Assembly: GCF_020731415.2 (NCBI RefSeq) | Contig: NZ_CP088276.1 | Coordinates: 62,001 to 126,000 of the forward strand | Reading direction: 5' to 3' | Length of the DNA stretch: 64,000 bases | Origin: Phyllobacterium sp. T1293 | GTDB taxonomy: Bacteria > Pseudomonadota > Alphaproteobacteria > Rhizobiales > Rhizobiaceae | Part shown: positions 26,296-57,829 of the stretch, piece after piece | Layout of the letters: each line of letters opens with the position of its first letter | How positions within the stretch are numbered: the stretch's first letter is position 1 | The notes under the pieces: generated by a model | Databases searched by the model: none | What the model was told of the DNA's origin: nothing | The model's input: only the letters and a program-made list of their open reading frames with translations | Made by a program: the position numbers and the translations under genes

Positions 26296-26365
26296 AGTGA
26301 TCCAGTCCTTTCTGAGGAACAAAGAGGATATCTAGTTGCGTTCATTGCTACCTTGGATGAGGGGC

Positions 26366-28880: not shown

Positions 28881-28893
28881 ACAAGGCTGAGTG

Positions 28894-30039: not shown

Positions 30040-30104
30040 TCGATCAAAGTTTTCCTTCTTCAACCACCGGGCACCAAGTCCGGATGAATAATGGGGTTCA
30101 GAAC

Positions 30105-31646
30105 ATGAAGAATGCTATTTTGGTTTCTCTGTTGTTGGGGCTGTCCGCAGCGCCTGCCGCCGCCCAATCAATCACAGCAGCAATTCCAGCTGATATTCGC
30201 AGCTCCAATCCCGGGGTAAACCGTGACGACTATACCGACGCTGTGGTCCTGCATTCGGTCGAAGGGTTGGTCGGATACAAGGAAGATGGAACCGTCGGCC
30301 CACTTCTCGCGCAGGATTACCAGCTGTCGCCTGATGGGCTGACCTATACGTTCAAACTGAGATCTGGCGTGACGTTCCATAATGGAGAAGCGCTCACCGC
30401 TGATGACGTGCTCTGGAGCTGGTCCCGTTACATGGACCCCAAAACAGAGTGGCGATGCTTGCCGGAGTTTGACGGACGCAACGGGCTCAAGGTCGAGTCC
30501 GTCACTGCGTCTGATCCGCAAACGGTTGTCATGAAAATCAATCACCCCAGCGCCATTTTCCTGGATACACTGGCACGCACTGATTGTGGAATGACAGCCA
30601 TTTTGCAGAAGGCTTCAGTGAAAGCTGATGGAAGCTGGGACAAACCAATCGGCACCGGACCGTATAAGTTTGGCGACTGGAAGCGCGGCGAATACATCAC
30701 CCTTGATGCGTTTGAAAACTACACCTCGCCTGCCGGAGAAAAGGCTGATGGCTATATCGGCGCAAAGCGACCTTTGATCAAGGAAATCAAATTCCTCGTC
30801 GTGCCTGACCCTGCAACGGTGAAAGCTGGCCTGTTGTCCGGCGCGCTGGATATCGCATCGGTTCTGAGTACGGACATTCCCGAATTCTCCGCCAACCCGA
30901 ACTTTGTGGTGACCGCAGGAGCAGAGGCCTCCAAGCACACATTTCTGATGCAGACCAAAGATCCGCTGCTTTCAAAAGTGGAATTGCGCCAGGCTATTGC
31001 TGCGGCACTGGATCTTCCGACATTGGTCGCACAGGCCACCAATGGAAGCGGTCAGCCTAATAATTCCGCGATCTTTCCGGGATCGCGATATTATAGCGAT
31101 ACCCAGAAAGAGGCTTTTACCCCTGATCCAACTAAGGTAGCAGAACTGCTTGCCAAGGCCGGATATAAGGGCGAAGAAATCACCATCATCGCCAATAAAC
31201 GCCCCACGGCACCAAGCTTTGATGCGGCGGTCGTTGCGCAAGCAATGCTTCAGGCCGTTGGCATCAATGTCCGAATTGAGGTTCTGGATTGGTCAACGCA
31301 GCTCGACCGGTACAATTCCGGCAAATACCAGATGATGTCTTTCTCATACTCGGCGCGTCTCGATCCCGCGCTGAGCTTTGAACAGTTCTCCGGCCCGAAA
31401 GACAAACAGCCACGAAAAGTCTGGGACAATCCGGAGGCTCTCGGGCTTATCGCCAAAGCCATGGAGATATCCGATCAAACGCAACGGCAAGGCATATTTG
31501 ACCTGCTTCACAAACAGCTTCTGCATGATGTCCCTTTGATCATCTACTGCAATGGAACCGGTGAAACCGTCAGCAGCAAGCGTTTGAAGGGCATACCCGC
31601 CTGGCAGGCGAAGCTTCGTCTCTGGGAACTCAGTGTCGAGCAATAG
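30105..31646 (+). CDS. Peptide/nickel-type ABC substrate-binding protein (family 5)
   Basis: Periplasmic binding protein of 513 aa with signal peptide (MKNAILVSLLLGLSAAPAAAQ, cleavage near residue 20). Family 5 features: DGTVGPLLAQDYQLSPDGLTYTF split by few residues, LRSGVTFHNGEALTADDVLWSW, and GTGPYKF. It receives a peptide or other organic ligand for the permeases that follow. ATG 30105 sits at the signal peptide; an in-frame ATG at 30084 gives a longer N terminus. It follows the C45 gene by 65 bases. Confidence 0.9.
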   Translation: MKNAILVSLLLGLSAAPAAAQSITAAIPADIRSSNPGVNRDDYTDAVVLHSVEGLVGYKEDGTVGPLLAQDYQLSPDGLTYTFKLRSGVTFHNGEALTADDVLWSWSRYMDPKTEWRCLPEFDGRNGLKVESVTASDPQTVVMKINHPSAIFLDTLARTDCGMTAILQKASVKADGSWDKPIGTGPYKFGDWKRGEYITLDAFENYTSPAGEKADGYIGAKRPLIKEIKFLVVPDPATVKAGLLSGALDIASVLSTDIPEFSANPNFVVTAGAEASKHTFLMQTKDPLLSKVELRQAIAAALDLPTLVAQATNGSGQPNNSAIFPGSRYYSDTQKEAFTPDPTKVAELLAKAGYKGEEITIIANKRPTAPSFDAAVVAQAMLQAVGINVRIEVLDWSTQLDRYNSGKYQMMSFSYSARLDPALSFEQFSGPKDKQPRKVWDNPEALGLIAKAMEISDQTQRQGIFDLLHKQLLHDVPLIIYCNGTGETVSSKRLKGIPAWQAKLRLWELSVEQ

Positions 31647-31678
31647 TCACTCTGGTTCGATACATCTGAGAGGCCAGC

Positions 31679-32623
31679 ATGTTGAAGTTCGCGCTCACCC
31701 GAGTTGGTACGGCTATCCCGACATTGTTTATTGTGGCGGTGTCCGTTTTCTTTCTCATTCGGCTTATTCCCGGCGACCCAGCTGCATTGATGCTGGGTGA
31801 TCTTGCCGACCCGGCCAGTCTTGCGGATTTGCGAGCGCGGTTGGGACTTGACCAGAGTATTCCGACCCAGTTTGCAATCTGGATCGGCAATATATTGCAT
31901 GGGGATTTTGGCCGGTCGATCACCAACCAGCAGGAGGTCTTGCCTCTCATACTGGCGCGATTGCGTATCAGCGCGGAGATCGTTCTGATTGCGGTATTTC
32001 TGGCAAGCATTGTTGCTGTTCCGGCAGGTATGATCGCCGCATGGCGACAGAACAGCATCACAGATGTGGCTTTGGTGGGCGGTGCGACCCTTCTGCTTTC
32101 CATCCCCGCATTCTGGATGGGTTTGCTTCTGCTGTTATTCTTCGGATTGAAACTGGGCTGGCTCCCCGTGCTCGGCTATGTCTCCATGTCCCAGAATCTT
32201 CCACAAGGATTGCTCTATATCATCCTACCCGTGGTGACACTCTTCCTGCATGAGATCGGCGTCATCCTGCGCATGGCACGCGCTTCGACACTTGAGGTCA
32301 TGCAGCTTGAATATATTACCCATGCCCGAGCCAAGGGCCTTTCGGAATCCGCTGTCCTCTGGCGTCACGCCTTCAAGAACGCTTTTGGCCCGACATGGAC
32401 CCTTATCGGCATTGTTCTGGGAAACCTGCTTGGCGGCATTGCCGTGGTTGAAACGGTATTCACGATCCCCGGTCTCGGGCGGTTGCTTGTCGATGCAATT
32501 TTTGCCCGGGACTATCCGGTGATCCAAGGCTGTCTCCTGCTCATCGCAACTGTTTACGTGCTGGTAAACCTCGTTGTCGATCTGCTCTATCCCATATTCG
32601 ATCCGAGGGTGACTGCAGAATGA
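31679..32623 (+). CDS. Peptide-type ABC transporter permease (DppB-like)
   Basis: Membrane subunit of 314 aa with six predicted helices. DppB/OppB marks are clear: SVFFLIRLIPGDPAALMLG near the N terminus, then the EAA loop ending in AKGLSESAVLWRHAFKNA and the ETVFTIPGLGRLLVDAI segment. It overlaps the next permease start by ATGA, so translation is coupled. Confidence 0.92.
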   Translation: MLKFALTRVGTAIPTLFIVAVSVFFLIRLIPGDPAALMLGDLADPASLADLRARLGLDQSIPTQFAIWIGNILHGDFGRSITNQQEVLPLILARLRISAEIVLIAVFLASIVAVPAGMIAAWRQNSITDVALVGGATLLLSIPAFWMGLLLLLFFGLKLGWLPVLGYVSMSQNLPQGLLYIILPVVTLFLHEIGVILRMARASTLEVMQLEYITHARAKGLSESAVLWRHAFKNAFGPTWTLIGIVLGNLLGGIAVVETVFTIPGLGRLLVDAIFARDYPVIQGCLLLIATVYVLVNLVVDLLYPIFDPRVTAE

Positions 32624-33432
32624 GAAATCTTGCTCCCAATGCGCTTTTAGGCAGCGCTCTTATCGGAACACTTCTGACCGGAGCATTCATGGGTGCGGTC
32701 TGGACGCCGTACGATCCGCTTGGTCTGAATTTCAAACTCAGACTTGCCGGGCCAAGTGCAGCCCATTGGTTGGGGACGGATGAGTTTGGCCGTGACGTGC
32801 TCAGCCGGTTGCTCGCCGGTGCTGCAACCAGCTTCTGGATAAGTCTGCTGACCGTTGTTCTGGCAGTGACCGCTGGCACGTTGATCGGAATGCTGACGGG
32901 CTATTTCCGTGGCTGGATCGATCGTATCATCATGACGTTCAACGATGCTTTGCTTGCTTTTCCCGGTATCCTGCTGGCGCTTGGATTGCTCGCGGTGGTG
33001 GGCGCCAATAAATACGGCATCATTCTGGCTCTTGGGCTAGCCTATACACCGACAGTTGTTCGTATTGTCCGTGGCAATGTCCTGTCATTGCGGGAACGGG
33101 AATTCATCGAAGCCTCCCGCGTGATGGGCAATTCGAATGCTTATACCATGTTCAGACATATTCTGCCCAACTGTATCGCGCCGCTTACGGTTCTTGCGAC
33201 GTCGATGTTCGGCTGGGTGCTGCTTGCTGAAAGCGCGTTGAGCTTTCTCGGTCTTGGTGTACCGCCTCCCGCGCCGACATGGGGCAATATGCTGGCCAGC
33301 GGGCGGCCATTCATTTCGCAGGCGATCTGGCTTGCCATTTTCCCCGGCCTTTGCATTTCGCTGACCCTGCTCGGGATTAATCTGCTTGGCGACGCACTTC
33401 GCGACAGACTCGATCCAAGGATGAGGGGATGA
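32620..33432 (+). CDS. Peptide-type ABC transporter permease (DppC-like)
   Basis: Second membrane subunit, 270 aa. Typical DppC sequences are HWLGTDEFGRDVLSRLLAGA, the EAA loop FIEASRVMGNSNAYTMFRHILPN and the C-terminal ALRDRLDPRMRG. It overlaps both neighbours by ATGA. The N-terminal cytoplasmic tail is short. Confidence 0.92.
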   Translation: MRNLAPNALLGSALIGTLLTGAFMGAVWTPYDPLGLNFKLRLAGPSAAHWLGTDEFGRDVLSRLLAGAATSFWISLLTVVLAVTAGTLIGMLTGYFRGWIDRIIMTFNDALLAFPGILLALGLLAVVGANKYGIILALGLAYTPTVVRIVRGNVLSLREREFIEASRVMGNSNAYTMFRHILPNCIAPLTVLATSMFGWVLLAESALSFLGLGVPPPAPTWGNMLASGRPFISQAIWLAIFPGLCISLTLLGINLLGDALRDRLDPRMRG

Positions 33433-35105
33433 CGATGCAGGAAAAGTCACCACTTCTTGACGTGCGCGGCCTTTCTTTGGAAGTAGCGCGAACAGGCATC
33501 AAAATCCTCAAAGCCATCAGCTTTAATGTGAAAGCGGGTGAGATTGTTGGGATAGTTGGAGAATCCGGGTCCGGAAAGTCCATGGCCGCCCGCGCCATCA
33601 TTGCCCTGAACCCGCCCGCGGTACACCGCACCGCCGGAACGATAAGTTTCGAAGGCCGGGATACGGGCTCCATGCACAAGCGCGATTTGCAGGCTTTGCG
33701 TGGTGCGCGGGTCGGCATGGTTTTCCAGGAGCCAATGACTTCGCTCAATCCCTCAATGACAATCGGCCGTCAGCTGGAAGAGGGGCTGCGGCTGCACCGG
33801 CGGTTGACAAGCCGCGAGCGCCATCGGCTGATTGTAGAGATGCTTGCCCGCGTTGGCCTGAATGATCCGCAAACTGCGCTTGCAGCCATGCCGCACCATT
33901 TCTCCGGTGGCATGCGCCAACGTATCATGCTGGCAGCGGTGATGCTGCTCAAGCCCGCATTACTCATTGCTGATGAGCCAACGACTGCACTGGATGCGGT
34001 GGTCCAGCGTGATGTACTCGAGTTGATGGTCGATCTGACGCGGGAGAACAACACGGCTGTCCTAATGATCAGCCATGACCTGGCAATGGTGGCCAAGTAC
34101 TCGGATCGTGTCGTGGTAATGTCGCAAGGCGAAATCGTCGAACAGGGCGATACGAAAGATCTGCTTCGCGCGCCGCAGCATCCCTATACCCGCAAATTGC
34201 TGTCTGCCTTGCCACACCGCATACCTGCGCGTTCCACGGAGGTTTCGCCTGTTGCACGAATAAATGTCGACAATCTCGTTGTGGATTTTGCGGCTCGCCG
34301 AAGCCTCCTGCGCAAAGGGCAACCGAAACGTGCGCTGAACGGGGTTAGTTTGAATGTCATGCCGGGAGAGGTCGTCGCTGTCGTTGGCGGATCGGGTTCT
34401 GGCAAGACGACATTGGGTCGGACAATTGCCGGGCTTATCAAGCCAAGTGGCGGCGAAATTCTGTTCAATGGGAAGTCGATCCAAACGTCGACGAGCGACT
34501 ATGCTGATTACAGGCTCAACTGCCAGATGGTGTTCCAGGACCCCTATTCGTCACTTGATCCGCGCATGACAATTGGCAGTCTGGTGGGAGAGGCATTGCG
34601 CCATTCGATTGATCTGACCAGCAGAGAGAGGAGCTTGCGCATTGCGGAGGTTCTCGATGAAGTTGGGTTGTCTGCGGAGTTTGCTTCCCGTTTCCCGCAC
34701 CAGCTCTCCGGTGGCCAGCGTCAGCGCGTTGCGATCGCCCGGGCGGTTGTAAGGCGGCCGCAATTCGTGATTGCCGATGAGCCGGTGTCTGCGCTGGATG
34801 TCACCGTTCGTGCGCAGGTGCTCAAGCTGTTTGCCGAGTTGCAACGAAAGCATGGGTTCTCGTGCCTGTTCATCAGCCATGATCTGGCGGTTGTCGAGCA
34901 GATCGCCGATCGGGTTATTGTCATGAACAATGGCGTGATCGTGGAGCAGGGGAGCCGCGATGCCATCTTTGACAATCCGCAGCATGATTACACCCGCAAA
35001 CTGCTTCAGGCTATTCCCGCTCTTTTTGGAACAGAAAATGGCGGTGTGGAACTGGGATGGCGTTTTGACGAAGTCGGCAGGAAATCAGTCCAAGGCAGGA
35101 ACTGA
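33429..35105 (+). CDS. Fused dual ATP-binding protein (DppD-DppF type)
   Basis: One chain of 558 aa carries both ATPase domains of a peptide importer. The first (about residues 1-265) has Walker A GESGSGKS, signature FSGGMRQRI and Walker [13 protein letters not shown]; the second (about 275-545) has [18 protein letters not shown] and FVIADEPVSALD. Both include the extra C-terminal segment (HPYTRKLL, HDYTRKLL) of oligopeptide ATPases. A single gene thus replaces the usual D and F pair. ATG 33429 overlaps the permease stop; ATG 33435 is an alternative. Confidence 0.92.
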   Translation: MTMQEKSPLLDVRGLSLEVARTGIKILKAISFNVKAGEIVGIVGESGSGKSMAARAIIALNPPAVHRTAGTISFEGRDTGSMHKRDLQALRGARVGMVFQEPMTSLNPSMTIGRQLEEGLRLHRRLTSRERHRLIVEMLARVGLNDPQTALAAMPHHFSGGMRQRIMLAAVMLLKPALLIADEPTTALDAVVQRDVLELMVDLTRENNTAVLMISHDLAMVAKYSDRVVVMSQGEIVEQGDTKDLLRAPQHPYTRKLLSALPHRIPARSTEVSPVARINVDNLVVDFAARRSLLRKGQPKRALNGVSLNVMPGEVVAVVGGSGSGKTTLGRTIAGLIKPSGGEILFNGKSIQTSTSDYADYRLNCQMVFQDPYSSLDPRMTIGSLVGEALRHSIDLTSRERSLRIAEVLDEVGLSAEFASRFPHQLSGGQRQRVAIARAVVRRPQFVIADEPVSALDVTVRAQVLKLFAELQRKHGFSCLFISHDLAVVEQIADRVIVMNNGVIVEQGSRDAIFDNPQHDYTRKLLQAIPALFGTENGGVELGWRFDEVGRKSVQGRN

Positions 35106-37721: not shown

Positions 37722-38186
37722 TCATGCAGACAGGACCAGATCGGCAATCATTTCGCCGTCCTCGTCCAGCCCTTCTTCTACGAAGCCGGCGGCGCGATAG
37801 AGCTGCCGCGCGCCTTCATTCTCGGGAGCATAGCAAATCGAAACATGCCGCACATGACCGAGGCTTCGGATTTCTTCCAGCGCTTTTCCCAGCGCAGCTT
37901 TGCCATAGCCGCGGCCCTGATGCGCACGATCGATCATGAAACGATATATGCGTGCCTCATCATCGTCCTCGGGCGCTTCGTACATCAGGAAACCGATCAC
38001 GCGATTTTCCGTTATCACAACGCGTGGTCGTGCATCTTCGTCAAGCGCAGCTTCGTCCAGCGAATCCGAGTTAGTTGCAACAAAACTCAACTGGTCAGGA
38101 CCAAGCGTCAGAGACGTAACCAAGGCACGATTGGCCTCCGTCACAGGCTCTAGATGGACTTCCGCGGTTTTCTGCTGGTCTGCCAA
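37722..38186 (-). CDS. GNAT-family N-acetyltransferase downstream of the Pls-type synthetase
   Basis: Acetyltransferase of 154 aa. The acetyl-CoA binding loop is RAHQGRGYGKAAL (Q/R-x-x-G-x-G/A), followed by the expected YAPENEGARQLYRAAGF. The N terminus (EVHLEPVTEANRALVTSL) resembles diamine/spermidine acetyltransferases of the BltD type, so an amino group on a polyamine or lysine-like substrate is plausible. It is 61 bases after the synthetase gene on the same strand, so they may share a transcript. A self-protection or tailoring role for the cationic product is an inference. Confidence 0.82.
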   Translation of the reverse strand: MADQQKTAEVHLEPVTEANRALVTSLTLGPDQLSFVATNSDSLDEAALDEDARPRVVITENRVIGFLMYEAPEDDDEARIYRFMIDRAHQGRGYGKAALGKALEEIRSLGHVRHVSICYAPENEGARQLYRAAGFVEEGLDEDGEMIADLVLSA

Positions 38187-38247: not shown

Positions 38248-41200
38248 TCAAGCGGATGTCTTGGAGGCGCTATTGAAAACTGGAGTGACGAACCGATGCA
38301 GCTTGGCCGGGTTGCCCCGCCATATGGAGTTCGGTTCCAGCACTTCACCCTTCATCACGAATGAGTCGACGTCGACCATCGATCCGTCGCCCATCACGAC
38401 GCCGTAGTGAACAAAGGCAGCAGGCCCCAGCGTACAACCCTTGCCGATGCGGATGAAGTCGGACTTGAACGCACCTTCTTCCAGCGAATGGGCCTGAATG
38501 ACGCAACCTTCATTGAGGGTGGTGTCATCGCCAATTTCCACCAGTGAGCGTTCGGTCAGGTTGCTGCCGCCATCATAAACCCTCTTGCCGACCTTGACGC
38601 CCAGCAGGCGTAAGATCATTGGCCGGAATGGGGTGCCGCCAAACAGGCGGGTAATAGGCGAATCCGACAGCTTCCAATGGCGTTCATGATGCCAGAATGG
38701 AGCGTCATAGATCGTCGTCATCTGTGGTTTCAACTTGCCAAAACCAAGACTTGCCCGCTCGAGCAGAACATAGAAAGGAATGGTGATCGCCGATGTCAGG
38801 AGTACGGCGACGAAAAGCGCGACCTCTGCCCATTCGGTATAATAGTTCAGCGCACGATCCCAAATAACCAGTGTGGCAAATAGCATGACCCATTGAGCCG
38901 CCAGAAACAGAAGTGCCGTCACCGCATTGTAGCGGTTTTTGAGTATCAGGCGGCTGCGGCGTTCATCTTCACTGATGCCCGCTATAAGTTCCTTATCCCT
39001 GTTCACCATGCGCGGGATTTCGAAGGAAGGTGAGCCCAGAAGCCCCACATTTTCGCGGATTGGTCCGTCAATGGGGATCATCACCTTGGTGCCGAGCAGG
39101 CAGTTGTCGCCGGTTCGACCGTCTGACGGATAATAGATATTGTTGCCCAGATAGTTACGCTCGCCAATCTTCGTATGTTCAAGCCGGAATGCTGAGGCTG
39201 ATTTGTGCATGTTGATCATGAACAGGCCATCCGACACCATGGTTTGGCTGCCAATCTCGCACAGGAGAGGATTTTCGTGTTGTTGATTGCTGCCGAAATT
39301 CGATCCGGTCTGCACGACTTTGTTGAGATTCCAGCCGATGGCGCGGATGTAATGGACAATCGCGGAGCTATCGCCAAACAGGAGATTGAGGACGCGGGAA
39401 TTGCTGCTGAATTCAACGACAGTTTGCAGCCAGTAACGGAAACCATAAAGGGTATAGGCCCGTCCGGATTTCAAAACCAGACTGAACAGTCGAGGCACTA
39501 CAAGCGCTGAGAACAGAGCTATAGCAATATATCCGAACAGCGTGACGGTGGTTCCGATTGCAACAATACCGATTGTCTCCTGATAATCGTCGCTGACATT
39601 CTGCCAATAGCTGTGGAACAGGAGTGGTATAGGCGTAACAAAGGCGAACAGCCCCACAAGTTGCGCCGCTTCATAGAGAACGCGTCTGACATTGGAGGAG
39701 TTCACATTGCGGACTTTGCAATACTCCGCCGTCGTTGGCACGGCTGGTGATCCATGCCAGTGCGCGCCATCAGGAATGCTCTGCCCGCGCTGGAGTGAGG
39801 ATGCATGACCAAGCTGGGCGCGATCACCCATTTTGGTATTGATATCGAGTGTGGAGCCGACGCCTATGAAAGCATCATGGCCAATCGTCAGCGGCCCCGT
39901 ATGGATATAGCCGGACTGGGCACGATAGCCGAGGATCATCGATTCCTTGCGCAGGATCGTGTTGTCGCCAATGGATATGAGGTCCGTACACACAGGAACT
40001 GTGCGGCATTCAATGACAGTGTTTCGGCCAAGCTTGGCACCGAGAAGCCGCAGATAAATGCTGTAAAGCGGGCTGCCGCGGAAGAGAACGACAGGCGCCG
40101 TGCGGATCAATGTCTGAACGACCCAAAAGCGGTAGTAGCGCAAGCCCCAGATGGGGAACGCTTCCGGTTTCCACCGGCCCACCAGTGCCCATTTCGCGAT
40201 GATTGCAACGCCCGACATTCCGAAGAAAACGCCGCCCGAAAGCAGCACACAGCGCAGATACAGTTGCAGCGGTTCGTCGAGTTTGTCGTAGGTCCAGTTG
40301 AGCCCACGGTTGAATGCCCACAAACCCAGATAACTATAGAGCCCGTAGAATAGCAGTTGCGCCATTCCGCAGGTCCAATAGGCAATGTTCGACGCCCGGT
40401 GCGTAAGAACGCGCTCGTTCGTGGCAGTCGTCATCTCCTCCGGGATACGCAGATGTTGCGCGAGGCGTGCCACGGTCGGGTAGAGGTAGATATCCCGCAT
40501 GGACGCCGTCGCCCATTCTTTTCTGGTACGCACACGGGCGCAGAAGCGGGCCATGAGAAGAGAATTGGCACCAAGATCGTCGAAGAAGTTGTCCTCCATG
40601 GACACCTCATCGAATTTCAGCACCTCGGCCAGCGCGACACCCAGAAAACGTTCGTCATCATTGCTGGGTGGGACGATCGTTCGCTCGGCCGAAAGTCGAA
40701 CGCTTGTTGGTTTCGGAAGCTGGCGTGTATCTGTCTTGTTGGCAACTGTCATCGGTATTGCCGACAGTTCTTCCAGGTAGGAAGGCACCATATAATCTGG
40801 CAAGCGACGCTTCAGCTCCCGGGCAAGGTCGGCACGAGAGATTGTTGGCAATCCCGTCTTGGGTGCGTAATAAGCAACGAGTTCCACGCGACCCGGTTCA
40901 ATTTCCCAGGTTGTCACAGCGGCCTGTGCAATCTCGGGCTGATCCAGCAATACCGCTTCGATCTCTCCGAGTTCGATGCGGTATCCGCGAATTTTTACCT
41001 GTGTATCTATGCGACCGTGATATTCGATCTCCCGGCCATCATTGATCCGGCCAAGATCGCCCGTCCGATAAATGCGCTTTGACGGGTTATTCGGCAGGCC
41101 AATGAAATCGGGGATGAACTTCTGTTCGGTCAGATCAGGCCTGTTGAGATAGCCCACGGCAAGTCCGATACCTGCAATGCATATCTCACCCAATTCTCCG

Positions 41201-42387
41201 GGCTCGGTAAGTGCCGGTGTCGTAGGATCAAGAACGACAATAGAGTAGGTGGGCAGGGGAGCGCCGATGGTCACGGGCCTGTCCGGCGTGAGCATACCCA
41301 TTGTTGCCGTAACGGTGGCTTCAGTTGGGCCATAGGTGTTGAGGATTTGGCGGCCGGGCTTCGACCAGCGCACCACGAGGTTGTGGGAGCACGCCTCACC
41401 GCCCACCAGTAGCGCCCGCAAAGTCGGTACGTCGCTCTCTATGGACGAAAGCAGCGTTGGGCTGCAGGCCATGCAGGTAACGTCATTCGTCCGAAGAAAA
41501 TCGGCAAGCTCCTCGCCCACCAGTGTCAGCGGGCCCGGTGCAGGCACCACCGTTGCACCGGCGACAAACGGCACCCAGATTTCTTCCGCCGAGAAATCGA
41601 AGGCAATGGTCATGCCCTGATAAACGCGGTCTTCTGGCCGGTAGCCGTAGGATGCCGCAGCAACCCGCACAAAATTGCAAATACTCTGATGCGTGATGAC
41701 CACACCCTTGGGTCTGCCGGTGGTTCCTGACGTGTAGAGAATGTAGCAGACATCGTCGGATGGGGCGGTCGCAGCGGTTGATGGCAATGGTTTGTCAGAC
41801 ATCGCCGTGATTTCCGCGGCAACGCTGTCAATCAATACGTGGGGTACGGGCAGTTGTTCGACCCGGGACGAATAGGCCGCGATGGAAACAAGCAGCCCGA
41901 CACTGGCGTCTTCGATGATGAGCTTCATGCGCTCTTCAGGAAAAGCCGTAGCGAGCGGAACGAAGGCTGCTCCCGCCTTCATTACAGCGAGCAAGGTAAC
42001 GTAGGTCTCGGCGGACCGGTCGAGAAGAAGCCCCACCCGATCGCCCGGTCGCACACCCCGGTCAACCAGAACGCGGGCAAACTGATTGGCCCGCTTGTTC
42101 AGTTCACGATAAGTCCAGACACGGCCTTCGGAGATTACAGCCGGTGACAAATCATAAGCGACAGCGAGCTGTTCGAAGAACTTGTCAAGGCGCTCGCCTG
42201 GCCGTCCTTCATGCGCAAAATCGGCACCCGTCAGAATCTGAGGGTGGGCGGCAATTCCGGAAGCGGGGGTGTTTTTCACAGTCGCATCAGCACTTCCGAA
42301 ACCAGCCGTTGTTCCGGACTGATTACTTGCATTCTTCGCCGCGCCCTTATCGAGTCCGGCACCGTCAACCCCGTGTTCCATTTCCAT
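38248..42387 (-). CDS. Pls/PosA-type membrane nonribosomal peptide synthetase
   Basis: Single-module synthetase of 1379 aa with the layout of epsilon-poly-L-lysine synthetase. Adenylation domain at 65-560 (A3 YILYTSGTTGRPKG, A5 NTYGPTE, A7 YRTGDLG, A10 lysine K551); peptidyl carrier at about 580-650 with phosphopantetheine serine S609 (LGANSL). Then six membrane helices (about 670-695, 708-737, 903-927, 940-970, 1155-1178, 1188-1212) divide three soluble parts resembling left-handed beta-helices, the tandem C domains of this family. No condensation or thioesterase domain. By hand the specificity residues read D264, F265, E268, then A, L, G, T, V, T, K551, close to lysine-type codes I recall. 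A cationic homopoly(amino acid) product is inferred. The AraC gene is divergent. Confidence 0.85.
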   Translation of the reverse strand: MEMEHGVDGAGLDKGAAKNASNQSGTTAGFGSADATVKNTPASGIAAHPQILTGADFAHEGRPGERLDKFFEQLAVAYDLSPAVISEGRVWTYRELNKRANQFARVLVDRGVRPGDRVGLLLDRSAETYVTLLAVMKAGAAFVPLATAFPEERMKLIIEDASVGLLVSIAAYSSRVEQLPVPHVLIDSVAAEITAMSDKPLPSTAATAPSDDVCYILYTSGTTGRPKGVVITHQSICNFVRVAAASYGYRPEDRVYQGMTIAFDFSAEEIWVPFVAGATVVPAPGPLTLVGEELADFLRTNDVTCMACSPTLLSSIESDVPTLRALLVGGEACSHNLVVRWSKPGRQILNTYGPTEATVTATMGMLTPDRPVTIGAPLPTYSIVVLDPTTPALTEPGELGEICIAGIGLAVGYLNRPDLTEQKFIPDFIGLPNNPSKRIYRTGDLGRINDGREIEYHGRIDTQVKIRGYRIELGEIEAVLLDQPEIAQAAVTTWEIEPGRVELVAYYAPKTGLPTISRADLARELKRRLPDYMVPSYLEELSAIPMTVANKTDTRQLPKPTSVRLSAERTIVPPSNDDERFLGVALAEVLKFDEVSMEDNFFDDLGANSLLMARFCARVRTRKEWATASMRDIYLYPTVARLAQHLRIPEEMTTATNERVLTHRASNIAYWTCGMAQLLFYGLYSYLGLWAFNRGLNWTYDKLDEPLQLYLRCVLLSGGVFFGMSGVAIIAKWALVGRWKPEAFPIWGLRYYRFWVVQTLIRTAPVVLFRGSPLYSIYLRLLGAKLGRNTVIECRTVPVCTDLISIGDNTILRKESMILGYRAQSGYIHTGPLTIGHDAFIGVGSTLDINTKMGDRAQLGHASSLQRGQSIPDGAHWHGSPAVPTTAEYCKVRNVNSSNVRRVLYEAAQLVGLFAFVTPIPLLFHSYWQNVSDDYQETIGIVAIGTTVTLFGYIAIALFSALVVPRLFSLVLKSGRAYTLYGFRYWLQTVVEFSSNSRVLNLLFGDSSAIVHYIRAIGWNLNKVVQTGSNFGSNQQHENPLLCEIGSQTMVSDGLFMINMHKSASAFRLEHTKIGERNYLGNNIYYPSDGRTGDNCLLGTKVMIPIDGPIRENVGLLGSPSFEIPRMVNRDKELIAGISEDERRSRLILKNRYNAVTALLFLAAQWVMLFATLVIWDRALNYYTEWAEVALFVAVLLTSAITIPFYVLLERASLGFGKLKPQMTTIYDAPFWHHERHWKLSDSPITRLFGGTPFRPMILRLLGVKVGKRVYDGGSNLTERSLVEIGDDTTLNEGCVIQAHSLEEGAFKSDFIRIGKGCTLGPAAFVHYGVVMGDGSMVDVDSFVMKGEVLEPNSIWRGNPAKLHRFVTPVFNSASKTSA

Positions 42388-42784
42388 ACTTTCTAGTCAT
42401 AGCCCAAGCATTGCCGCGCATATGTTCGCGCAGGGCATCATGCAATCTCTTCACAAAGCATTGTCTATCGGCTGGCTGTGCGCCGTGGCTGAAATGACCT
42501 CTCCGTCATGGATGCGGAATACCCCAAGCTTCCATAAAAGAAAAGCCCGGAACTCCGGGTGGTCATTACTATAAACGCCAATCTCACTACATAAGGGCTG
42601 AATGATATTACATAATAACCATGATCCAGAACGCTGGGTGCTTAGCCTGTCGCCAATCATGCGATCAGGGATATCCACTGAGTGATGTCAGGTTAGCTCA
42701 TCTATGACGGAGAAGGTCTTTTGATTGGCGGCCTTATCGGGCAATATGCATTCGTCAATAGACTTCATATTGGGAGGAAGGTCG
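42388..42784. other. Divergent leader region between synthetase and AraC gene
   Basis: This 397-base region should hold promoters for both flanking genes. It includes a strong minus-strand hairpin with a T-rich tail at 42537-42559. A minus-strand frame from 42678 to 42451 (75 codons at most) passes through that hairpin; it lacks a ribosome site and resembles nothing known, so it is not called a gene. Confidence 0.5.
42537..42559 (-). terminator. Terminator-like hairpin in the synthetase leader
   Basis: On the minus strand CCCGG, AGTT, CCGGG (42559 to 42546) is followed by CTTTTCTTTT. That is a compact Rho-independent terminator, yet no minus-strand gene ends here: it lies about 150 bases before the synthetase start. 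It may be an attenuator in the synthetase mRNA leader or end a small RNA. Confidence 0.6.
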
Positions 42785-43672
42785 ATGCGGCCGGATCTTG
42801 AAGTCGTTCAGATCAATAGCGACGAAGCATTCAGGGCTTGGTCGCATGGCTACCCTCATCATATAGCCCGATGGCACTTCCATCCTGAATATGAAATCCA
42901 TCTGATAGCAGAGACAACGGGTTACTATTTCATCGGGGACTTTATCGGCGAATTTGAACCGGGCAATCTGGTGTTGACGGGACCAAACTTGCCGCACAAT
43001 TGGATAAGCAATATCCCAGACGACCAAATTATCGATATGCGTGATTTCGTCGTTCAATTTACCCAGAAGTTTATTGAGAACACGATTGAGGTGATACCGG
43101 AACTATCTGCTTTCAAGGTATTGTTGGATGAAAGTCCACGCGGTCTGTTCTTTGATGCTGAGACCGGAGCCGCTGTCCGGCCTATGCTTCTGGAACTGTT
43201 CGATGCAAGCGGAGCCCGCCGGATTGCGCAATTTATGAGCATTGTTGACAAATTGATCAATGCCAGAGAGCGAAGGCAATTGGCAAGCCATGGCTATATG
43301 CCAGATCCTTCGGGCTATATGTCCAGCTCCATAAACAAGGTGCTGTCCTATATCTCTGAAAACCTGACGACATTTGACAAAGACGTTAGCCTCGCGGCCA
43401 TTGCCGGGCAGAGTGCCAGCGCGTTCTCGATGTCATTTCGCCGGCACACAGGGATGACGCCGGTGCATTATGTAAACCGCTTGAGGATCAATCTGGCCTG
43501 CCAGCTATTGATGAGCGAGGAGAACATGACGGTAACGGACATTTGTTACGAAGTCGGCTTCAATAATCTTTCAAACTTCAATCGCCAGTTTCTGACGTTG
43601 AAGGGTATGCCGCCGTCCCGGTTCCGTTCGTTATATGCGACGCAATTTACAAGGAAAGCAGCTGACCAATAA
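42785..43672 (+). CDS. AraC-family regulator with cupin-type sensor
   Basis: Regulator of 295 aa. The N-terminal half (about residues 15-125) looks like a cupin sensor (ARWHFHPEYEIHLI, FEPGNLVLTGPNLPHNW). The C-terminal 100 residues are two AraC helix-turn-helices (DVSLAAIAGQSASAFSMSFRR, MTVTDICYEVGFNNLSNFNRQF). ATG 42785 has GGAGGAAGG just upstream, far better than TTG 42725 or ATG 42746. It is divergent from the Pls-type synthetase, making that gene the first candidate target. Confidence 0.85.
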   Translation: MRPDLEVVQINSDEAFRAWSHGYPHHIARWHFHPEYEIHLIAETTGYYFIGDFIGEFEPGNLVLTGPNLPHNWISNIPDDQIIDMRDFVVQFTQKFIENTIEVIPELSAFKVLLDESPRGLFFDAETGAAVRPMLLELFDASGARRIAQFMSIVDKLINARERRQLASHGYMPDPSGYMSSSINKVLSYISENLTTFDKDVSLAAIAGQSASAFSMSFRRHTGMTPVHYVNRLRINLACQLLMSEENMTVTDICYEVGFNNLSNFNRQFLTLKGMPPSRFRSLYATQFTRKAADQ

Positions 43673-45844: not shown

Positions 45845-46816
45845 CTAGGCGAGGTGGCAGGCAACGTGATGGCCCTTGTCCAGCGTCCGTAGTTCCGGCA
45901 CTTCAATTCTGCAACGGTCGACTGCCAATGGACAGCGGGTATGAAAACGACACCCGGCTGGTGGCGAGGCGGGGCTTGGCAACTCACCTTGCAGTACAAC
46001 GCGGTTGTGCCGTACGTCCGGATCAGCCACAGGAATGGCTGATAAAAGGGCTTGTGTATAGGGATGACGTGGGTGGTCAAACAGCGCGTTGCGGCTCGCC
46101 GTCTCAACGATCACGCCGAGATACATGACGGCTATTTCATCGCAAAGATGCTCGACGACAGCCAGATCGTGCGAGATGAACAGGAAGGTCAGTCCCTGTT
46201 GCTCCTTGAGGTCGGAAAACAGATTGATGATCTGGGCCTGGATCGAAACGTCAAGCGCCGAGACGGGCTCGTCGGCTATGATCAATTCGGGCTTCAATGC
46301 CAATGCTCGGGCGATGCCTATACGCTGGCGTTGGCCGCCGGAGAATTCATGCGGGTAGCGTGCGTATTGGTATGGCGCAAGGCCGCAGATGCGCATCACT
46401 TCGAGCACCGTGTCGCGTAACTCGGCTTTCCTGACTAGCCCATGCGTCAGAAGCGCTTCGCCGATTGCATCGCCAGCCCGAACCCGTGGATTGAGCGAGC
46501 CGTAAGGGTCCTGAAACACCAGCTGCATTTTCGGCCGCAGCGCTGCCAGCGCCTTGCGGCCACCGGCTTGAATGTCTTTGCCATGAAAGCGAACAGTGCC
46601 GGTTGTTGGTTTGTAGAGCCCAAGCATGGCCCGTCCGAGTGTAGACTTGCCACTGCCGGATTCGCCGACCAGTCCGAAAGTGGTGCCACGCCGGATACGA
46701 ATGCTCACACCATCGACGGCCCTGACATGGCCTGAGACCTGACCGAACAGCCCGTCACGGATCGGGAAATGAACTTTGAGGTTTTCGACTTCAAGCAAAG
46801 CGGAAACGTCTGTCAT
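45845..46816 (-). CDS. Peptide-type ABC transporter ATP-binding protein (DppF/OppF-like)
   Basis: ATPase of 323 aa, last gene of a five-gene importer. Walker A GESGSGKST, signature FSGGQRQRI, Walker B LIIADEPVSALD, and the C-terminal oligopeptide-ATPase zinc-like region (GCRFHTRCPLAVDRCR) are present. The start ATG 46816 overlaps the preceding gene's stop (ATGA); the frame stays open upstream to 46936 but that lies inside the neighbour. Confidence 0.92.
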   Translation of the reverse strand: MTDVSALLEVENLKVHFPIRDGLFGQVSGHVRAVDGVSIRIRRGTTFGLVGESGSGKSTLGRAMLGLYKPTTGTVRFHGKDIQAGGRKALAALRPKMQLVFQDPYGSLNPRVRAGDAIGEALLTHGLVRKAELRDTVLEVMRICGLAPYQYARYPHEFSGGQRQRIGIARALALKPELIIADEPVSALDVSIQAQIINLFSDLKEQQGLTFLFISHDLAVVEHLCDEIAVMYLGVIVETASRNALFDHPRHPYTQALLSAIPVADPDVRHNRVVLQGELPSPASPPAGCRFHTRCPLAVDRCRIEVPELRTLDKGHHVACHLA

Positions 46817-47790
46817 ATCGCCCCCGACTGAGCCAGGAAACAGGCAGCACGATGTGGCGAGCTTGCCAGTCCCAGCGATGGAATGCCGGAGCGGCAGATA
46901 TCGACCGCAGCAAAGCAGCGTTCGGCAAAGGCACAATAGGCAGGGAGCCGGGCTGGACTGGGGACTTGACCCGGAATGGAAACCAGACGGCGTAACCGTT
47001 GCCCCGGAACCGGCCGCGAGGCGAGCAGGCCGCGCGTGTAGGGATGCTTGGGGTGCCGCAGCACGTCACGAACCGTACCGGTTTCAACCACTCGGCCAGC
47101 ATACATCACGATCACCCGGTCAGCCAGTTCCGCCACCAGTCCAAGGTCATGCGTGATGAGCATCAAAGCCGTACCTTCATCCTGTTTCAGCCAATTGAGC
47201 AGATCCAGGATTTGAGCCTGAATGGTTACATCAAGCGCTGTTGTTGGCTCGTCGGCGATCAGCAGTTTTGGTTTACAGCTGAGGGCGATGGCAATCATCA
47301 CGCGCTGCAACATGCCGCCGGAAAGTTGGTGCGGGTAGCCTTCGACAATCCGCTCGGGACGGGCAATACCGACGCGCGCCAGGAGAGCAATTGCCTCTGC
47401 CCATGCCGCTTTTGGTGGCATCTTGCGATGCTCGATCAACGGTTCGACAATCTGCTCGCCGATAGTCAGGACTGGATTGAGCGAACTCATTGGCTCCTGA
47501 AAAATCATGGCGATTTCGTTGCCGCGCATGGTCCGCATAGCTTCCGGCTTCAGGGTGAGAAGGTCTTGGCCGCGATACAAGATCTGACCGCCAGCGATGT
47601 ATCCGTTCGGGCGGGAGACCAGACCCATCAGCGACAGTGCTGTCACGCTCTTGCCACAGCCGGATTCACCAACCACACCAACAGTTTCGCCTTCGCCAAT
47701 GCTGAAGCTGACATCCTGAACGGCGCGGGCGACGCCCTCATCGGTTTTAAAATAAGTCGACAGGTTCTGGAATTCGACAAGCGGGGGCAT
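46813..47790 (-). CDS. Peptide-type ABC transporter ATP-binding protein (DppD/OppD-like)
   Basis: First ATPase of the importer, 325 aa. Walker [10 protein letters not shown], signature LSGGMLQRV (note Leu for the common Arg), Walker [13 protein letters not shown], and the C-terminal segment [15 protein letters not shown]. It begins seven bases after the permease stop and overlaps the next ATPase start. Separate D and F genes here contrast with the fused gene at 33429. Confidence 0.92.
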
Positions 47791-47797
47791 GTTCGGC

Positions 47798-48745
47798 TTA
47801 CCGTTTCATCTTTGGGTCGAGTGCATCGCGCAGCCCGTCGCCCACTATGTTGATGGCAACCACAGTCAGGAAGATTGCAACGCCCGGCGGCATCCACAAC
47901 CAGGGCCTGCGCTGGAAATCGACAAAGCTGTTGGCGGTATCCATCATGTTGCCCCAGGATGGCGTCGGAGGAACCACGCCAAGGCCGAGATAGCTGAGAT
48001 AGGCCTCATTCAGGATGGCACTGGCAACGCCTATGGTTGCCGCCACGATCAGGATTGGTACCGTATTGGGCAGCAGATGGTGGAACAGCCGCCGGTGCAA
48101 AGGCAGACCTAAAACCTCCGTCGCTATCATGAAGTCACGCTCACGCAGTGACAGGATCTGGGACCGCACAAGGCGCGCGACCGTTACCCAATTCGGCAGA
48201 CTAAGCATGAGAATGACGAGATAGATGCGCTGATCAGGTGGTACCTTCAACTCGGACAGCACGGCACCAATGATAATGAGAAGAGGTAGCGTCGGGATTG
48301 TCATCACGAGATCGGCCCCACGCATAATCACGGCGTCGGTCAGGCCTCCGAGATAACCGGCAATCGCGCCCGCAATGTAGCCGATGACCACCGACAGGAA
48401 TACCGACGCCAAGCCGACCGTCAGTGAGATACGACCGGCTGACATCAGTCTTGCCATGATATCGCGTCCGAGGAAATCCGTTCCAAGCCAGTGTTTCAGG
48501 CTTGGCGGGCGGTTGACACTGAGCGCATCGGTGGCGTTCAAATCCCAGCGGCTGACGAATGGTCCAACCACACAGATGAGAACGATCAACAGCAGCACAC
48601 CCAGTGCTGTCATGGCAGTGGCGTTGCGGCGCATCCGCCACAATGCGTCGCCAAGCGGTGAGCGCGTCGAGCCGAGATGCCCGGTCAGTGCGAGCAGTTC
48701 GACCTGACGTGTTCGGTTTCGGCGGAAAGGATTGAAGGAAACCAT
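47798..48745 (-). CDS. Peptide-type ABC transporter permease (DppC/OppC-like)
   Basis: Membrane subunit of 315 aa with six helices. Typical features: LKHWLGTDFLGRDIMARLMSAG, the EAA loop FMIATEVLGLPLHRRLFHHLLPN and C-terminal GDGLRDALDPKMKR. The N-terminal tail of about 45 residues is longer than in the DppC at 32620. ATG 48745 starts one base after the preceding permease stop, with GAGG upstream. Confidence 0.92.
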   Translation of the reverse strand: MVSFNPFRRNRTRQVELLALTGHLGSTRSPLGDALWRMRRNATAMTALGVLLLIVLICVVGPFVSRWDLNATDALSVNRPPSLKHWLGTDFLGRDIMARLMSAGRISLTVGLASVFLSVVIGYIAGAIAGYLGGLTDAVIMRGADLVMTIPTLPLLIIIGAVLSELKVPPDQRIYLVILMLSLPNWVTVARLVRSQILSLRERDFMIATEVLGLPLHRRLFHHLLPNTVPILIVAATIGVASAILNEAYLSYLGLGVVPPTPSWGNMMDTANSFVDFQRRPWLWMPPGVAIFLTVVAINIVGDGLRDALDPKMKR

Positions 48746-48746
48746 T

Positions 48747-49709
48747 CTAACCTCGCCGTAGCCGGATTCGAGGATCAGCGGCGGCATAGGCAATGTCAGC
48801 CAGCAAATTGCCAAGTATGGTCATTGCGGCCAGAACCATTGTGAAGCCCATAAGCACCGGATAGTCACGTGCTGCCAGTGTGTCGATCTGAATGTGCCCG
48901 GCGCCGGGCCAATTGAAAATCTTCTCGGTGACAATGGCCCCGGAGAACAGGCCGGGCAGTTCGAAGCCCAGAAGCGTGATCATGGGTAACATCGCATTGC
49001 GCAAGGCATGTTTGAAAATGACGGTTCGTTCTTTCAATCCCTTGGCCCGTGCGGTGCGCACAAAGTCCATCGAGAGTGCCTCAAGCATACTGGCGCGGAT
49101 GTAGCGCGTCAGGCTTCCGGCCTGCAATGCGGTCAGCACCAGAACCGGCAGCACCATATGAGCTGCCACCTCGATGACCCACGCGAAACCGGTTGTCTCG
49201 CTGCCGGTGCTTATCATCCCGCCAACCGGCAACCAGCGCAGGTCAACCGCGAACCATTTGATCAGGAGCAGACAAAGGAAGAAAACCGGAAATGACATGG
49301 CGCCAAAGATCGCCAGCGTCACAATGCGGTCGTACCAGGAATAGGGCCAGACAGCTGCGGTGATGCCAGCCAGCAGCGAGACAAACCAGTAGAGAAGCAG
49401 CGCCGTTCCGCCCAGAAGGAAGGAATTCCAGATGTATTGGTTGAGAAGACTGGCCACCGGAATCTGATACTGCATGGAATAACCGAGATCACCCGTCAGC
49501 AAGTGACCCAGCCAATCGAAATACCGGTCAAAAACAGGCCGGTCGAGGCCATAAAGTGCCTTCAGTTCCGCCGCCCGTTCAGCGGTCAGATTGATGTTGC
49601 CGTCAATGAAATCGCCCGGCGTCAGGGCGAAGATAAAGAAAATCAGTGCCGAGGCTCCAAGAAGCATCGGCACCGACAGCAACAATCTGCGAATAATGAA
49701 GTTTTTCAT
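48747..49709 (-). CDS. Peptide-type ABC transporter permease (DppB/OppB-like)
   Basis: Membrane subunit of 320 aa with six helices; MLLGASALIFFIFALTPGDF at the N terminus and the EAA loop ending AKGLKERTVIFKHALRNA are DppB-like. ATG 49709 is preferred; GTG 49721 would add four residues. Downstream genes follow with almost no gap. Confidence 0.9.
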   Translation of the reverse strand: MKNFIIRRLLLSVPMLLGASALIFFIFALTPGDFIDGNINLTAERAAELKALYGLDRPVFDRYFDWLGHLLTGDLGYSMQYQIPVASLLNQYIWNSFLLGGTALLLYWFVSLLAGITAAVWPYSWYDRIVTLAIFGAMSFPVFFLCLLLIKWFAVDLRWLPVGGMISTGSETTGFAWVIEVAAHMVLPVLVLTALQAGSLTRYIRASMLEALSMDFVRTARAKGLKERTVIFKHALRNAMLPMITLLGFELPGLFSGAIVTEKIFNWPGAGHIQIDTLAARDYPVLMGFTMVLAAMTILGNLLADIAYAAADPRIRLRRG

Positions 49710-49732
49710 GTTCGACAGCACGCCATGTGACG

Positions 49733-51436: not shown

Positions 51437-51943
51437 AGCGATATCCTTCATGACGGGAAGGTGGAACCTGCCCACCCGCGAAATGAAAGTCAACCGGAGG
51501 TGTTCATCAGTATGAACAGCTTCAACCGGTGCGGTAAATCCGAACTGGTGCGCGAATAGTCCCATTGTGGAGAATCTCATATGTCACCCTCAAATTGATC
51601 AGGGGAGCATAGGTCGCCAGATTATATGCACAAAGTGAACTGTGCCCATTTTGAGCCCGATTGAGCAAAATCTTCTCGCCGCAGTGCCTTTTCGGCAATG
51701 ACAGTTTCGCCTATGGCTCTCGTTTAACTCGGACCATATAAAGTTGGGGTTGAATAGATTCGATAAGACCGGGATAACTGGCGGCGAATGAATCATCTGG
51801 GGAAGAGGTCATCAACATCTGCGCTTCCGCCAAGGCAACGTCCGTTAAAGAGACGCAGTTCGACAAGCGAACGATGCTCCGGCGATATCCACTCCTTTAT
51901 CGGGAGTTTGGATCACTCCTTCTAACTGACCAAAGGAACGTCC
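51437..51943. other. Intergenic region between divergent transporter operon and periplasmic gene
   Basis: No convincing gene in these 507 bases. Just before the plus-strand gene, ATCC (51887-51890) and CTCC (51892-51895) are mirrored by GGAG (51903-51906) and GGAT (51910-51913), an interrupted dyad in the likely promoter. The transporter promoter should lie between 51450 and 51700 on the minus strand; no clear consensus seen. Confidence 0.35.
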
Positions 51944-54985: not shown

Positions 54986-55056
54986 AGGATAATCCCCGCT
55001 GCAGGTCAGAACGCACATCATACCAACAGCTTTCCTCGACTTCAAAAGTGAGAGCT

Positions 55057-55290: not shown

Positions 55291-55333
55291 TCAAAAAAGC
55301 GTCCTGGTGTTCCAGAACGAGCGTCTTTTTTGA
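55291..55333. terminator. A/T-tract hairpin at the left edge of the vgrG island
   Basis: TCAAAAAA (55291-55298) pairs with TTTTTTGA (55326-55333); inside, CGT (55300-55302) pairs with ACG (55317-55319) and CTGG (55304-55307) with CCAG (55312-55315) around TGTT. Both strands read as a terminator, yet the flanking genes are divergent and none ends here. Confidence 0.55.
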
Positions 55334-57387: not shown

Positions 57388-57392
57388 GCGGA

Positions 57393-57821: not shown

Positions 57822-57829
57822 GAGCCAAA

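What the first reader, a model, noticed from the sequence alone, without database searches (positions are those of the whole stretch)
38248..42387. Pls/PosA-type synthetase with a lysine-like specificity code in an alphaproteobacterium
The gene has the complete A-PCP-six helix-three soluble domain layout of membrane synthetases that make epsilon-poly-lysine and other cationic homopolymers, best studied in Streptomyces. Aligned by hand to the GrsA pocket, the code reads D-F-E-A-L-G-T-V-T-K; the acidic third position, Gly at the sixth and Val at the eighth resemble lysine-type codes as I recall them. No condensation or thioesterase domain exists, as in the family. A polycationic product from this group of bacteria would be notable.
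Basis: partly seen in the sequence, partly recalled or inferred. Interest (0 to 1): 0.8.

Follow-up and report, generated by a model that had tools for sequence, protein, structure and literature searches.

The report
Rhizobial cationic amino-acid polymer synthetase
This is an intact gene for an enzyme of a known family that strings one kind of diamino acid into a positively charged chain; such genes are already known in root bacteria, and its pocket points to a shorter building block than lysine, whose source in these genomes is not evident.

Summary
The gene is real and intact, on the MINUS strand (38248-42387, 1379 aa). It is a full Pls/PosA-family synthetase: adenylation domain, carrier domain with its serine, complete TIGR02353 terminal domain (894.7 bits, cut-off 423.1), no condensation or thioesterase match. 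'Lysine-like' is not supported: in the PosA paper (PMC10522769) position 2 tracks chain length (Ala lysine, Met ornithine, Phe diaminopropionate/diaminobutyrate), and this one has Phe. Rhizobial members of the family are already in print. The clade is common in Hyphomicrobiales, keeps its code, is constrained (dN/dS 0.03-0.10) and usually sits in a synthetase-acetyltransferase-phosphopantetheinyl-transferase cluster (50 of 59 loci). It lies in a Phe-coded group where three relatives have a diaminobutyrate (Dab) transaminase next door. Rhizobial members lack that neighbour, and most carriers tested, this genome included, have no Dab transaminase or SbnB-type dehydrogenase over cut-off. Best reading: a working synthetase for a short diamino acid, most likely Dab, with an unexplained monomer supply.

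The parts
38248..42387 (-). Pls/PosA-family synthetase gene, 1379 aa
   Evidence: dN/dS 0.033-0.101
40702..42168 (-). adenylation (A) domain, about residues 74-562
   Evidence: TIGR01733 421 bits, PF00501 275 bits; PDB relatives include Pls 7WEW and PosA 8G95-8G98
41308..41598 (-). span of pocket codons 1-9 of the ten-letter code: D264 F265 E268 A307 L327 G329 T351 V359 T360
40735..40737 (-). codon of K551, tenth code residue
40438..40635 (-). carrier (PCP) domain, about residues 585-650, with the predicted phosphopantetheine serine S609 (codon 40561-40563)
   Evidence: PF00550 31.7 bits; S609 invariant in all 30 diverse rows
38305..40374 (-). C-terminal polymerisation domain (TIGR02353), residues 672-1361: three pairs of long helices, three left-handed beta-helix (hexapeptide acyltransferase-like) domains
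   Evidence: AlphaFold best model mean pLDDT 74, pTM 0.80; hexapeptide acyltransferase folds in PDB
38488..38490 (-). codon of H1300 in the third beta-helix domain, the only His among the 20 C-terminal residues invariant in all 30 diverse rows; candidate catalytic base (inference)
37722..38186 (-). GNAT acetyltransferase, 154 aa, starting 62 bases after the synthetase stop; probably same transcript (inference)
   Evidence: PF00583 55.7 bits; GNAT match in 54 of 59 clade loci with enough downstream sequence
42388..42724 (.). divergent intergenic region between the synthetase and the AraC gene, with a 15-nt inverted repeat (42500-42514 / 42699-42713, 93%)
   Evidence: function not tested
42725..43672 (+). 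divergent AraC-family regulator; candidate local regulator, not conserved across the clade (tblastn hit only in the window and L085 of 75 loci, E up to 1e-8)
   Evidence: PF12833 84.6 bits

Best explanation
A working membrane-bound homopolymer synthetase of the Pls/PosA family (CHPA synthetases; as I recall, antiSMASH calls such clusters NAPAA). The A domain activates one short-chain diamino acid with ATP, most likely 2,4-diaminobutyrate and less likely 2,3-diaminopropionate. The monomer is loaded on the phosphopantetheine of S609, after a transferase acting in trans in this genome has primed the carrier. [quoted passage not shown] The co-encoded GNAT probably acetylates the monomer or product (self-protection or end-capping). 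Shown: architecture, code, conservation, gene cluster. Inferred: monomer, isopeptide bond, priming in trans, GNAT role, use of the product.
For: Full TIGR02353 and A-PCP layout. Phe at position 2 with D1 and E3, the pattern the PosA paper gives for Dap/Dab enzymes. In the 44-row tree the window sits in a 25-row group (SH-aLRT 100) inside a 28-row group (98) with Skermanella, Paenarthrobacter, Pseudonocardia, Kocuria, Rhodococcus and Streptomyces rows; 27 of those 28 rows have Phe2, the exception being L101. Code-to-neighbour calibration: both Skermanella rows (DFECLSVVTK) have an annotated ectB directly upstream (the one scanned scores 596 bits to TIGR02407, cut-off 552). A Streptomyces row (DFECLSAVTK) has a Dat-family gene about 105 bases downstream (TIGR00709 439.7 bits, cut-off 401.6). 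A row with a beta-lysine-type code has a KamA-family gene nearby. Purifying selection, a kept synthetase-GNAT-PPTase cluster (50 of 59), 48 residues invariant in 30 diverse rows and a second PPTase elsewhere in this genome argue that it is used.
Against: No Dab transaminase in this genome over the TIGR00709 cut-off (best 180 of 401.6); over cut-off in only 2 of 11 synthetase-bearing relatives, this genome included, and 7 of 27 rhizobial carriers reached through loci (at least three genomes are in both sets). No SbnB-type gene over cut-off in any of those (0 of 11, 0 of 27). No Dat-family gene over cut-off was found beside a rhizobial member; the only EctB-like hits there (25-26% identity; L065, L066, L069, L071) are a class-III aminotransferase below the Dat cut-off in the copy scanned. 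The code differs from the Dab-linked codes at positions 4, 6 and 7 (A, G, T for C, S, V or A), and T7 and T9 resemble PosA's amine-binding Thr and Ser. I saw no assay of an enzyme with this code.
Confidence: 0.5

Rival explanations
1. A delta-poly-ornithine synthetase: T7 and T9 with E3 bind the delta-amine as in PosA, and ornithine is present in every cell, which would explain the missing Dab and Dap genes.
For: T7 and T/S9 as in PosA DMEHNGTVSK; no Dab/Dap pathway gene over cut-off in most carriers tested.
Against: Position 2 is Phe, not Met; positions 4 and 5 are A, L, not H, N (though these do not touch substrate in PosA); the ornithine-coded rows fall in another part of the tree.
Confidence: 0.2
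2. An epsilon-poly-lysine synthetase.
For: E3, G6, T7, V8 are shared with the Ala2 codes DAESIGTV[VI]K; lysine is always available.
Against: Phe in place of Ala at the chain-length position; in PosA a smaller residue there (M218A) raised efficiency with lysine nearly tenfold; the Ala2 rows fall outside the window's group in the tree (they are long rows whose exact place is unsure).
Confidence: 0.07
3. A polymer of another monomer not yet known for this family (a D-diamino acid, a modified or larger basic amino acid), with the altered pocket marking a change of substrate in the rhizobial lineage.
For: Pocket differs at positions 4, 6 and 7 from Dab-linked relatives and no Dat gene is found beside it; three Rhizobium loci have a class-III aminotransferase about 418 bases upstream (a fourth 6.7 kb upstream) whose best racemase and transaminase matches are below their cut-offs.
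Against: Phe2 leaves little room for a larger side chain; no dedicated gene shared by most of the clade was seen apart from GNAT and PPTase.
Confidence: 0.18
4. A decayed or unused gene in this genome, because the cluster's own PPTase is missing.
For: No PPTase match after the GNAT in the window, nor in L085, L076 or L047 (in L047 the GNAT itself is two short pieces).
Against: dN/dS 0.033 against L085, which also lacks it; frame, code, S609 and invariant C-terminal residues intact; a second PPTase-family protein is encoded beside an NRPS on another contig.
Confidence: 0.05

Closest known systems
Epsilon-poly-L-lysine synthetase Pls (Streptomyces; A domain PDB 7WEW)
   Same: Domain layout, terminal domain family, D1 and E3; A domain matched in the PDB search (259.7 bits).
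   Different: Lysine enzymes have Ala at position 2 (PMC10522769); this has Phe.
Delta-poly-L-ornithine synthetase PosA (Acinetobacter; PDB 8G95-8G98)
   Same: Layout; E3, G6, T7, V8 and a hydroxyl residue at 9.
   Different: Phe for Met at position 2, A/L for H/N at 4 and 5; rows with its code lie in a different part of the tree.
Gamma-poly-diaminobutyrate synthetases (pldA with dat and ask; pddA) and beta-poly-diaminopropionate synthetase (S. albulus PD-1); seen in passages of PMC8117764 and passages plus section 7 of PMC4668381
   Same: Phe at position 2 (per PMC10522769) and same architecture.
   Different: No dat beside the rhizobial gene and none over cut-off in this genome; no SbnB-type gene over cut-off in this genome. 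In S. albulus the Dap genes are also away from the synthetase, so lack of linkage alone proves nothing. Their full ten-letter codes were not available to me.
Skermanella ectB-linked homologues (L099, L100; 50 and 49% identity)
   Same: Nearest alphaproteobacterial relatives outside the rhizobial clade among those found, Phe2 code.
   Different: DFECLSVVTK with ectB directly upstream.
Alphaproteobacterial homologues with DLED[IL]G[ST]VVK (about 30% identity; Rhizobium tropici, Azospirillum and others)
   Same: Same family and partly the same genus (Rhizobium).
   Different: A separate lineage and code; close to the code the PosA paper reports for Rhizobia and Methylobacterium.

Membership tests
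Pls/PosA family (CHPA synthetases, TIGR02353) | Terminal domain above the curated cut-off over its whole length | tested here: met
   894.7 bits against 423.1, 1-695/695
Pls/PosA family (CHPA synthetases, TIGR02353) | Single A-PCP module, carrier serine, no condensation or thioesterase domain | tested here: met
Pls/PosA family (CHPA synthetases, TIGR02353) | Six membrane helices in three pairs around three soluble domains | tested here: met
   Model with three helix pairs and three beta-helix domains, middle part of low confidence; hydropathy alone found five of six
Pls/PosA family (CHPA synthetases, TIGR02353) | Asp1 and Glu3 in the pocket | tested here: met
   D264, E268
Pls/PosA family (CHPA synthetases, TIGR02353) | Makes an isopeptide-linked cationic homopolymer | not testable with these tools
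   needs enzyme assay
Epsilon-poly-lysine synthetase | Ala at code position 2 | tested here: not met
   F265; rule from PMC10522769
Delta-poly-ornithine synthetase | Met at code position 2 | tested here: not met
   F265
Poly-Dap / poly-Dab synthetase | Phe at code position 2 | tested here: met
   F265; rule from PMC10522769
Poly-Dap / poly-Dab synthetase | Dab transaminase or Dap dehydrogenase gene in the genome | tested here: not met
   TIGR00709 best 180 of 401.6 bits; TIGR03944 best 135.6 of 326.9 bits; genome 96.4% complete. A supporting feature, not a strictly defining one; SbnA and other Dap routes were not searched
Poly-Dap / poly-Dab synthetase | Adenylation of Dab or Dap | not testable with these tools
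   needs ATP-PPi exchange
Epsilon-poly-beta-lysine synthetase | DGESISVVNK code and a lysine 2,3-aminomutase | tested here: not met
   Code differs (published code); no match to a Mesorhizobium aminomutase-like protein in this genome at E 1e-30

The most novel reading that the evidence does not exclude
The rhizobial clade took over a Dab-polymer synthetase, left the Dab-making gene behind and changed its pocket (C4 to A, S6 to G, V7 to T), so that it now polymerises a different, universally available or not yet described monomer: a new natural cationic homopolymer spread through soil- and root-associated Hyphomicrobiales.
Probability: 0.25. Interest if true: 0.6.

Novelty: new member of a known kind. 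Interest (0 to 1): 0.35.

Why it matters
In the papers I saw (passages and some sections), no polymer of this family is reported from alphaproteobacteria, although the genes are common there. A conserved three-gene cluster in Mesorhizobium, Phyllobacterium, Aureimonas and relatives suggests a product worth keeping in soil or around roots (inference). The mismatch between a Dab/Dap-like second pocket residue and the missing monomer genes is a sharp, cheap test of how well the code predicts substrate in this family.

Tried and rejected
Lysine-like code: rejected on position 2. Beta-lysine: 30 loci, all Mesorhizobium by title, carry a lysine-2,3-aminomutase-like gene near the cluster, which looked like a supply gene. 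It scores below the aminomutase equivalog cut-offs but over the KamA subfamily one. It is not matched in this genome, is present in a genome of the same genus as the Mesorhizobium carriers but without the synthetase (G467), lies on another contig in G570, and is absent from the carrier G595. I take it as a local neighbour. In the two loci whose downstream frames I listed I recognised no EF-P modification gene, by eye only, so its own role is open.

Peptide ABC transporters as exporters: two peptide-type operons flank the region but their clusters recur in only 4-7 of the loci compared, so I do not count them as parts. The AraC gene was matched only in the window and L085 of 75 loci.

Pattern scan: 2 promoter-like sites against 4.1 expected, 11 terminator-like against 5.2 (sd 2.7); most lie inside genes and I draw nothing from them. 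Clustering of neighbours by longest frame was confused by antisense frames in GC-rich DNA; I replaced it by tblastn counts. In one search the longest frame of L094 is not the synthetase, so its distances are not meaningful. In one search three GNAT matches (L066, L069, L071) are only 27-30% identical and the one in L047 is two short pieces in different frames. labels its list 'at least 29 of 30'; its threshold in fact admits only 30 of 30.

The tree is a quick one, rooted at the midpoint for drawing; rows L105, L175, L177, L157 and L160 are long and their place is unsure.

Published full codes of the characterised Dap and Dab synthetases were not available (supplements not open to me; figures not held). 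Searches for papers on this clade or on the polymer in rhizobia (listings only, and only 20 rows of 2,298) showed no title on it; they cover open-licence PMC papers only.

Structure: the first 50-60 rows listed are hexapeptide-repeat proteins, mainly acyltransferases and gamma-carbonic anhydrases; no whole Pls terminal domain was among them, which does not exclude one. Four of the five AlphaFold models were poorer (mean pLDDT 52.8-67.0).
Full report
WHAT IS THERE. The window carries one uninterrupted 1379-codon gene at 38248-42387 on the minus strand. It matches TIGR02353 (Pls/PosA family terminal domain) at 894.7 bits, cut-off 423.1, over the full profile, and TIGR01733 (amino acid adenylation) at 421 bits, cut-off 317.4. 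Pfam shows AMP-binding, AMP-binding_C, PP-binding and hexapeptide repeats, and no condensation or thioesterase domain. It is the only match over the cut-off in this genome (5.07 Mb, 4 contigs, 96.4% complete). The nearest named relative is Phyllobacterium sp. OV277, 98% identical over the full length.

THE CODE. The same columns in other relatives return published codes: DMEHNGTVSK in four rows (the PosA code), DSECYGGVTK in one (the Bdellovibrionales code) and DLEDIGTVVK in one (a form of the code reported for Rhizobia and Methylobacterium), so the mapping is sound (published codes). Of 105 rows, 69 belong to the window's clade: 62 DFEALGTVTK, 5 DFEAMGTVTK, 2 DFEALGTITK. Some strains are in that set twice, from two collections (L036/L182, L035/L183, L076/L184, L085/L185 by equal contig lengths). 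Two rows gave no usable code (L154, masked; L176, whose frame has no readable A domain). Before the alignment I left out nine short or duplicate rows (L001, L006-L011, L095, L102).

WHY NOT LYSINE. In the PosA paper (PMC10522769; sections 4, 10, 11, 13 and 14 read, others in passages) Asp1 and Glu3 are conserved in the family, and position 2 tracks chain length: Ala in lysine enzymes, Met in PosA (ornithine), Phe in Dap/Dab enzymes. The M218A change in PosA raised efficiency with lysine nearly tenfold. The three Ala2 rows, lysine-type by the paper's rule, read DAESIGTVVK or DAESIGTVIK.

RELATIVES AND TREE. The search for related loci returned 60 loci, mostly Mesorhizobium, with Phyllobacterium, Rhizobium, Aureimonas, Brucella-named (former Ochrobactrum) and a few other Hyphomicrobiales, and two actinobacteria at 46-48%. 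Plasmid records add Shinella (74-76%), Aureimonas (73%), Rhizobium rhizoryzae (71%), Skermanella (49-50%) and Paenarthrobacter (47.5%). The family is over cut-off in 7 of 39 relatives, 10 of 385 genomes drawn from the class and 26 of 398 drawn from the phylum, this genome counted in each; a further genome, G020, has contig-edge pieces (126 and 45 bits) that may be an eighth. In the 44-row tree the window falls in a 25-row group (SH-aLRT 100) with Skermanella, Paenarthrobacter, Pseudonocardia and Kocuria rows; with L106 (Rhodococcus), L107 (Streptomyces) and L157 (unnamed) they make a 28-row group (98). Of these 28 rows 27 have Phe at position 2; L101 (Pseudonocardia alni) has Leu. The ornithine-, Ala2-, beta-lysine- and DLED-coded rows are outside it. 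The tree is quick, midpoint-rooted for drawing, and its long rows are unsure.

WHAT THE NEIGHBOURS SAY ABOUT MONOMERS. Both Skermanella rows (DFECLSVVTK) have an annotated ectB, Dab transaminase, directly upstream; the one scanned (L099) passes TIGR02407 and TIGR00709. A Streptomyces row (DFECLSAVTK) has a Dat-family gene just downstream, 439.7 bits against 401.6. A row with a beta-lysine-type code (DGESVSVVNK, L177) has a KamA-family gene over that subfamily's cut-off nearby, though below the lysine-2,3-aminomutase equivalog cut-off. PMC8117764 (passages) names dat and ask in the legend on such clusters. The other two DFECLSVVTK rows, L089 (Pseudonocardia) and L098 (Paenarthrobacter), show no EctB-like hit in the stretch held. 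So neighbours can report monomers in this family, though not always: in S. albulus the Dap genes lie away from the synthetase (PMC4668381 section 7).

THE SUPPLY GAP. In the rhizobial loci, with up to 8 kb held on each side and less in some, no Dat-family gene over cut-off was found beside the synthetase. In this genome the best TIGR00709 score is 180 of 401.6 and the best TIGR03944 (SbnB) score 135.6 of 326.9. Over cut-off, Dat occurs in 2 of 11 synthetase-bearing and 1 of 21 synthetase-free relatives, and in 7 of 27 rhizobial carriers reached through loci against 3 of 3 others (Kocuria; a Pseudonocardia MAG, whose match has one internal TGA; and the Skermanella plasmid record, which was already known to hold ectB). 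SbnB occurs in 0 of 11 and 1 of 21, 0 of 27 rhizobial carriers and 1 of 2 actinobacteria. The two carrier sets overlap in at least three genomes (equal contig lengths). The 27 were my choice among the 58 loci of that clade. SbnA was not searched. Three Rhizobium loci have a class-III aminotransferase about 418 bases upstream, and a fourth has it 6.7 kb upstream; the copy scanned scores 233 bits to the Dat family, below cut-off, and its best 25 models are all below theirs. The window has no close copy (best 29% identity, 32.8 kb away).

GENE CLUSTER. Of 65 clade loci examined, 59 have at least 1300 bases downstream; 50 have both a GNAT and a phosphopantetheinyl transferase match there, 4 GNAT only (the window, L085, L076, and L047 where it is two short pieces), 4 transferase only, 1 neither. 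The window's GNAT (37722-38186) is a plain GNAT-fold protein (PF00583, 55.7 bits) with weak similarity to RimI (34.2 bits, cut-off 86.4) and to the Dab acetyltransferase EctA (26.5 bits, cut-off 120.6). The missing transferase may be replaced by a second PPTase-family protein (252 aa; PF01648 over cut-off; best NCBIfam match HetI, 99 bits, below its cut-off of 370) next to an NRPS and a monooxygenase that I read as a siderophore locus, on another contig; whether it primes this carrier is untested.

CONSTRAINT. dN/dS against L085, L035, L076 and L043 is 0.033, 0.064, 0.070 and 0.101 (simple Nei-Gojobori counts, synonymous changes near saturation for the last three). The gene is under strong purifying selection.

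VERDICT. Observation confirmed; lysine reading not supported; presence in alphaproteobacteria ordinary. What remains of interest is a conserved clade with a pocket for which I saw no assay, a Dab/Dap-like second residue, and no evident source of Dab or Dap in most carriers tested.

Noticed in passing
window 55330-63093 (+): VgrG-like, DcrB-domain, PAAR/RHS-repeat protein of 1554 aa and a small gene without Pfam match in a row: looks like a type VI secretion effector cluster.
   Followed up: partly
window 29964-35105 (+) and 45845-51580 (-): Two peptide-type (Opp/Dpp-like) ABC transporter operons flank the region; the first follows a C45-family acyltransferase/hydrolase at 28891-30039 (291 bits, cut-off 85).
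   Followed up: no
window 24484-26322 (-): Serralysin-like metalloprotease (299 bits to NF035945, below its cut-off of 500).
   Followed up: no
window 52652-55045 (-): Protein of 797 aa made largely of tetratricopeptide repeats.
   Followed up: no
L037:14613-15749 and 29 other Mesorhizobium loci: A lysine-2,3-aminomutase-like (KamA-family) gene lies near the synthetase cluster, below the equivalog cut-offs; its role is open.
   Followed up: partly
L065, L066, L069 (about 418 bases upstream of the synthetase): A class-III aminotransferase not over the cut-off of any of its best 25 NCBIfam models (copy of L065 scanned); possible monomer-forming or racemising enzyme in Rhizobium.
   Followed up: partly
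L089: Pseudonocardia MAG with two synthetase-like frames of about 1600 aa, 1.8 kb apart, on the same strand; possibly a tandem pair.
   Followed up: no
(39 genomes and 14 controls): TIGR02353 gives weak matches in 39 of 39 genomes and 13 of 14 controls at E 0.001, mostly through generic hexapeptide repeats; only 7 of 39 are over the 423-bit cut-off, so only those should be counted as members.
   Followed up: yes
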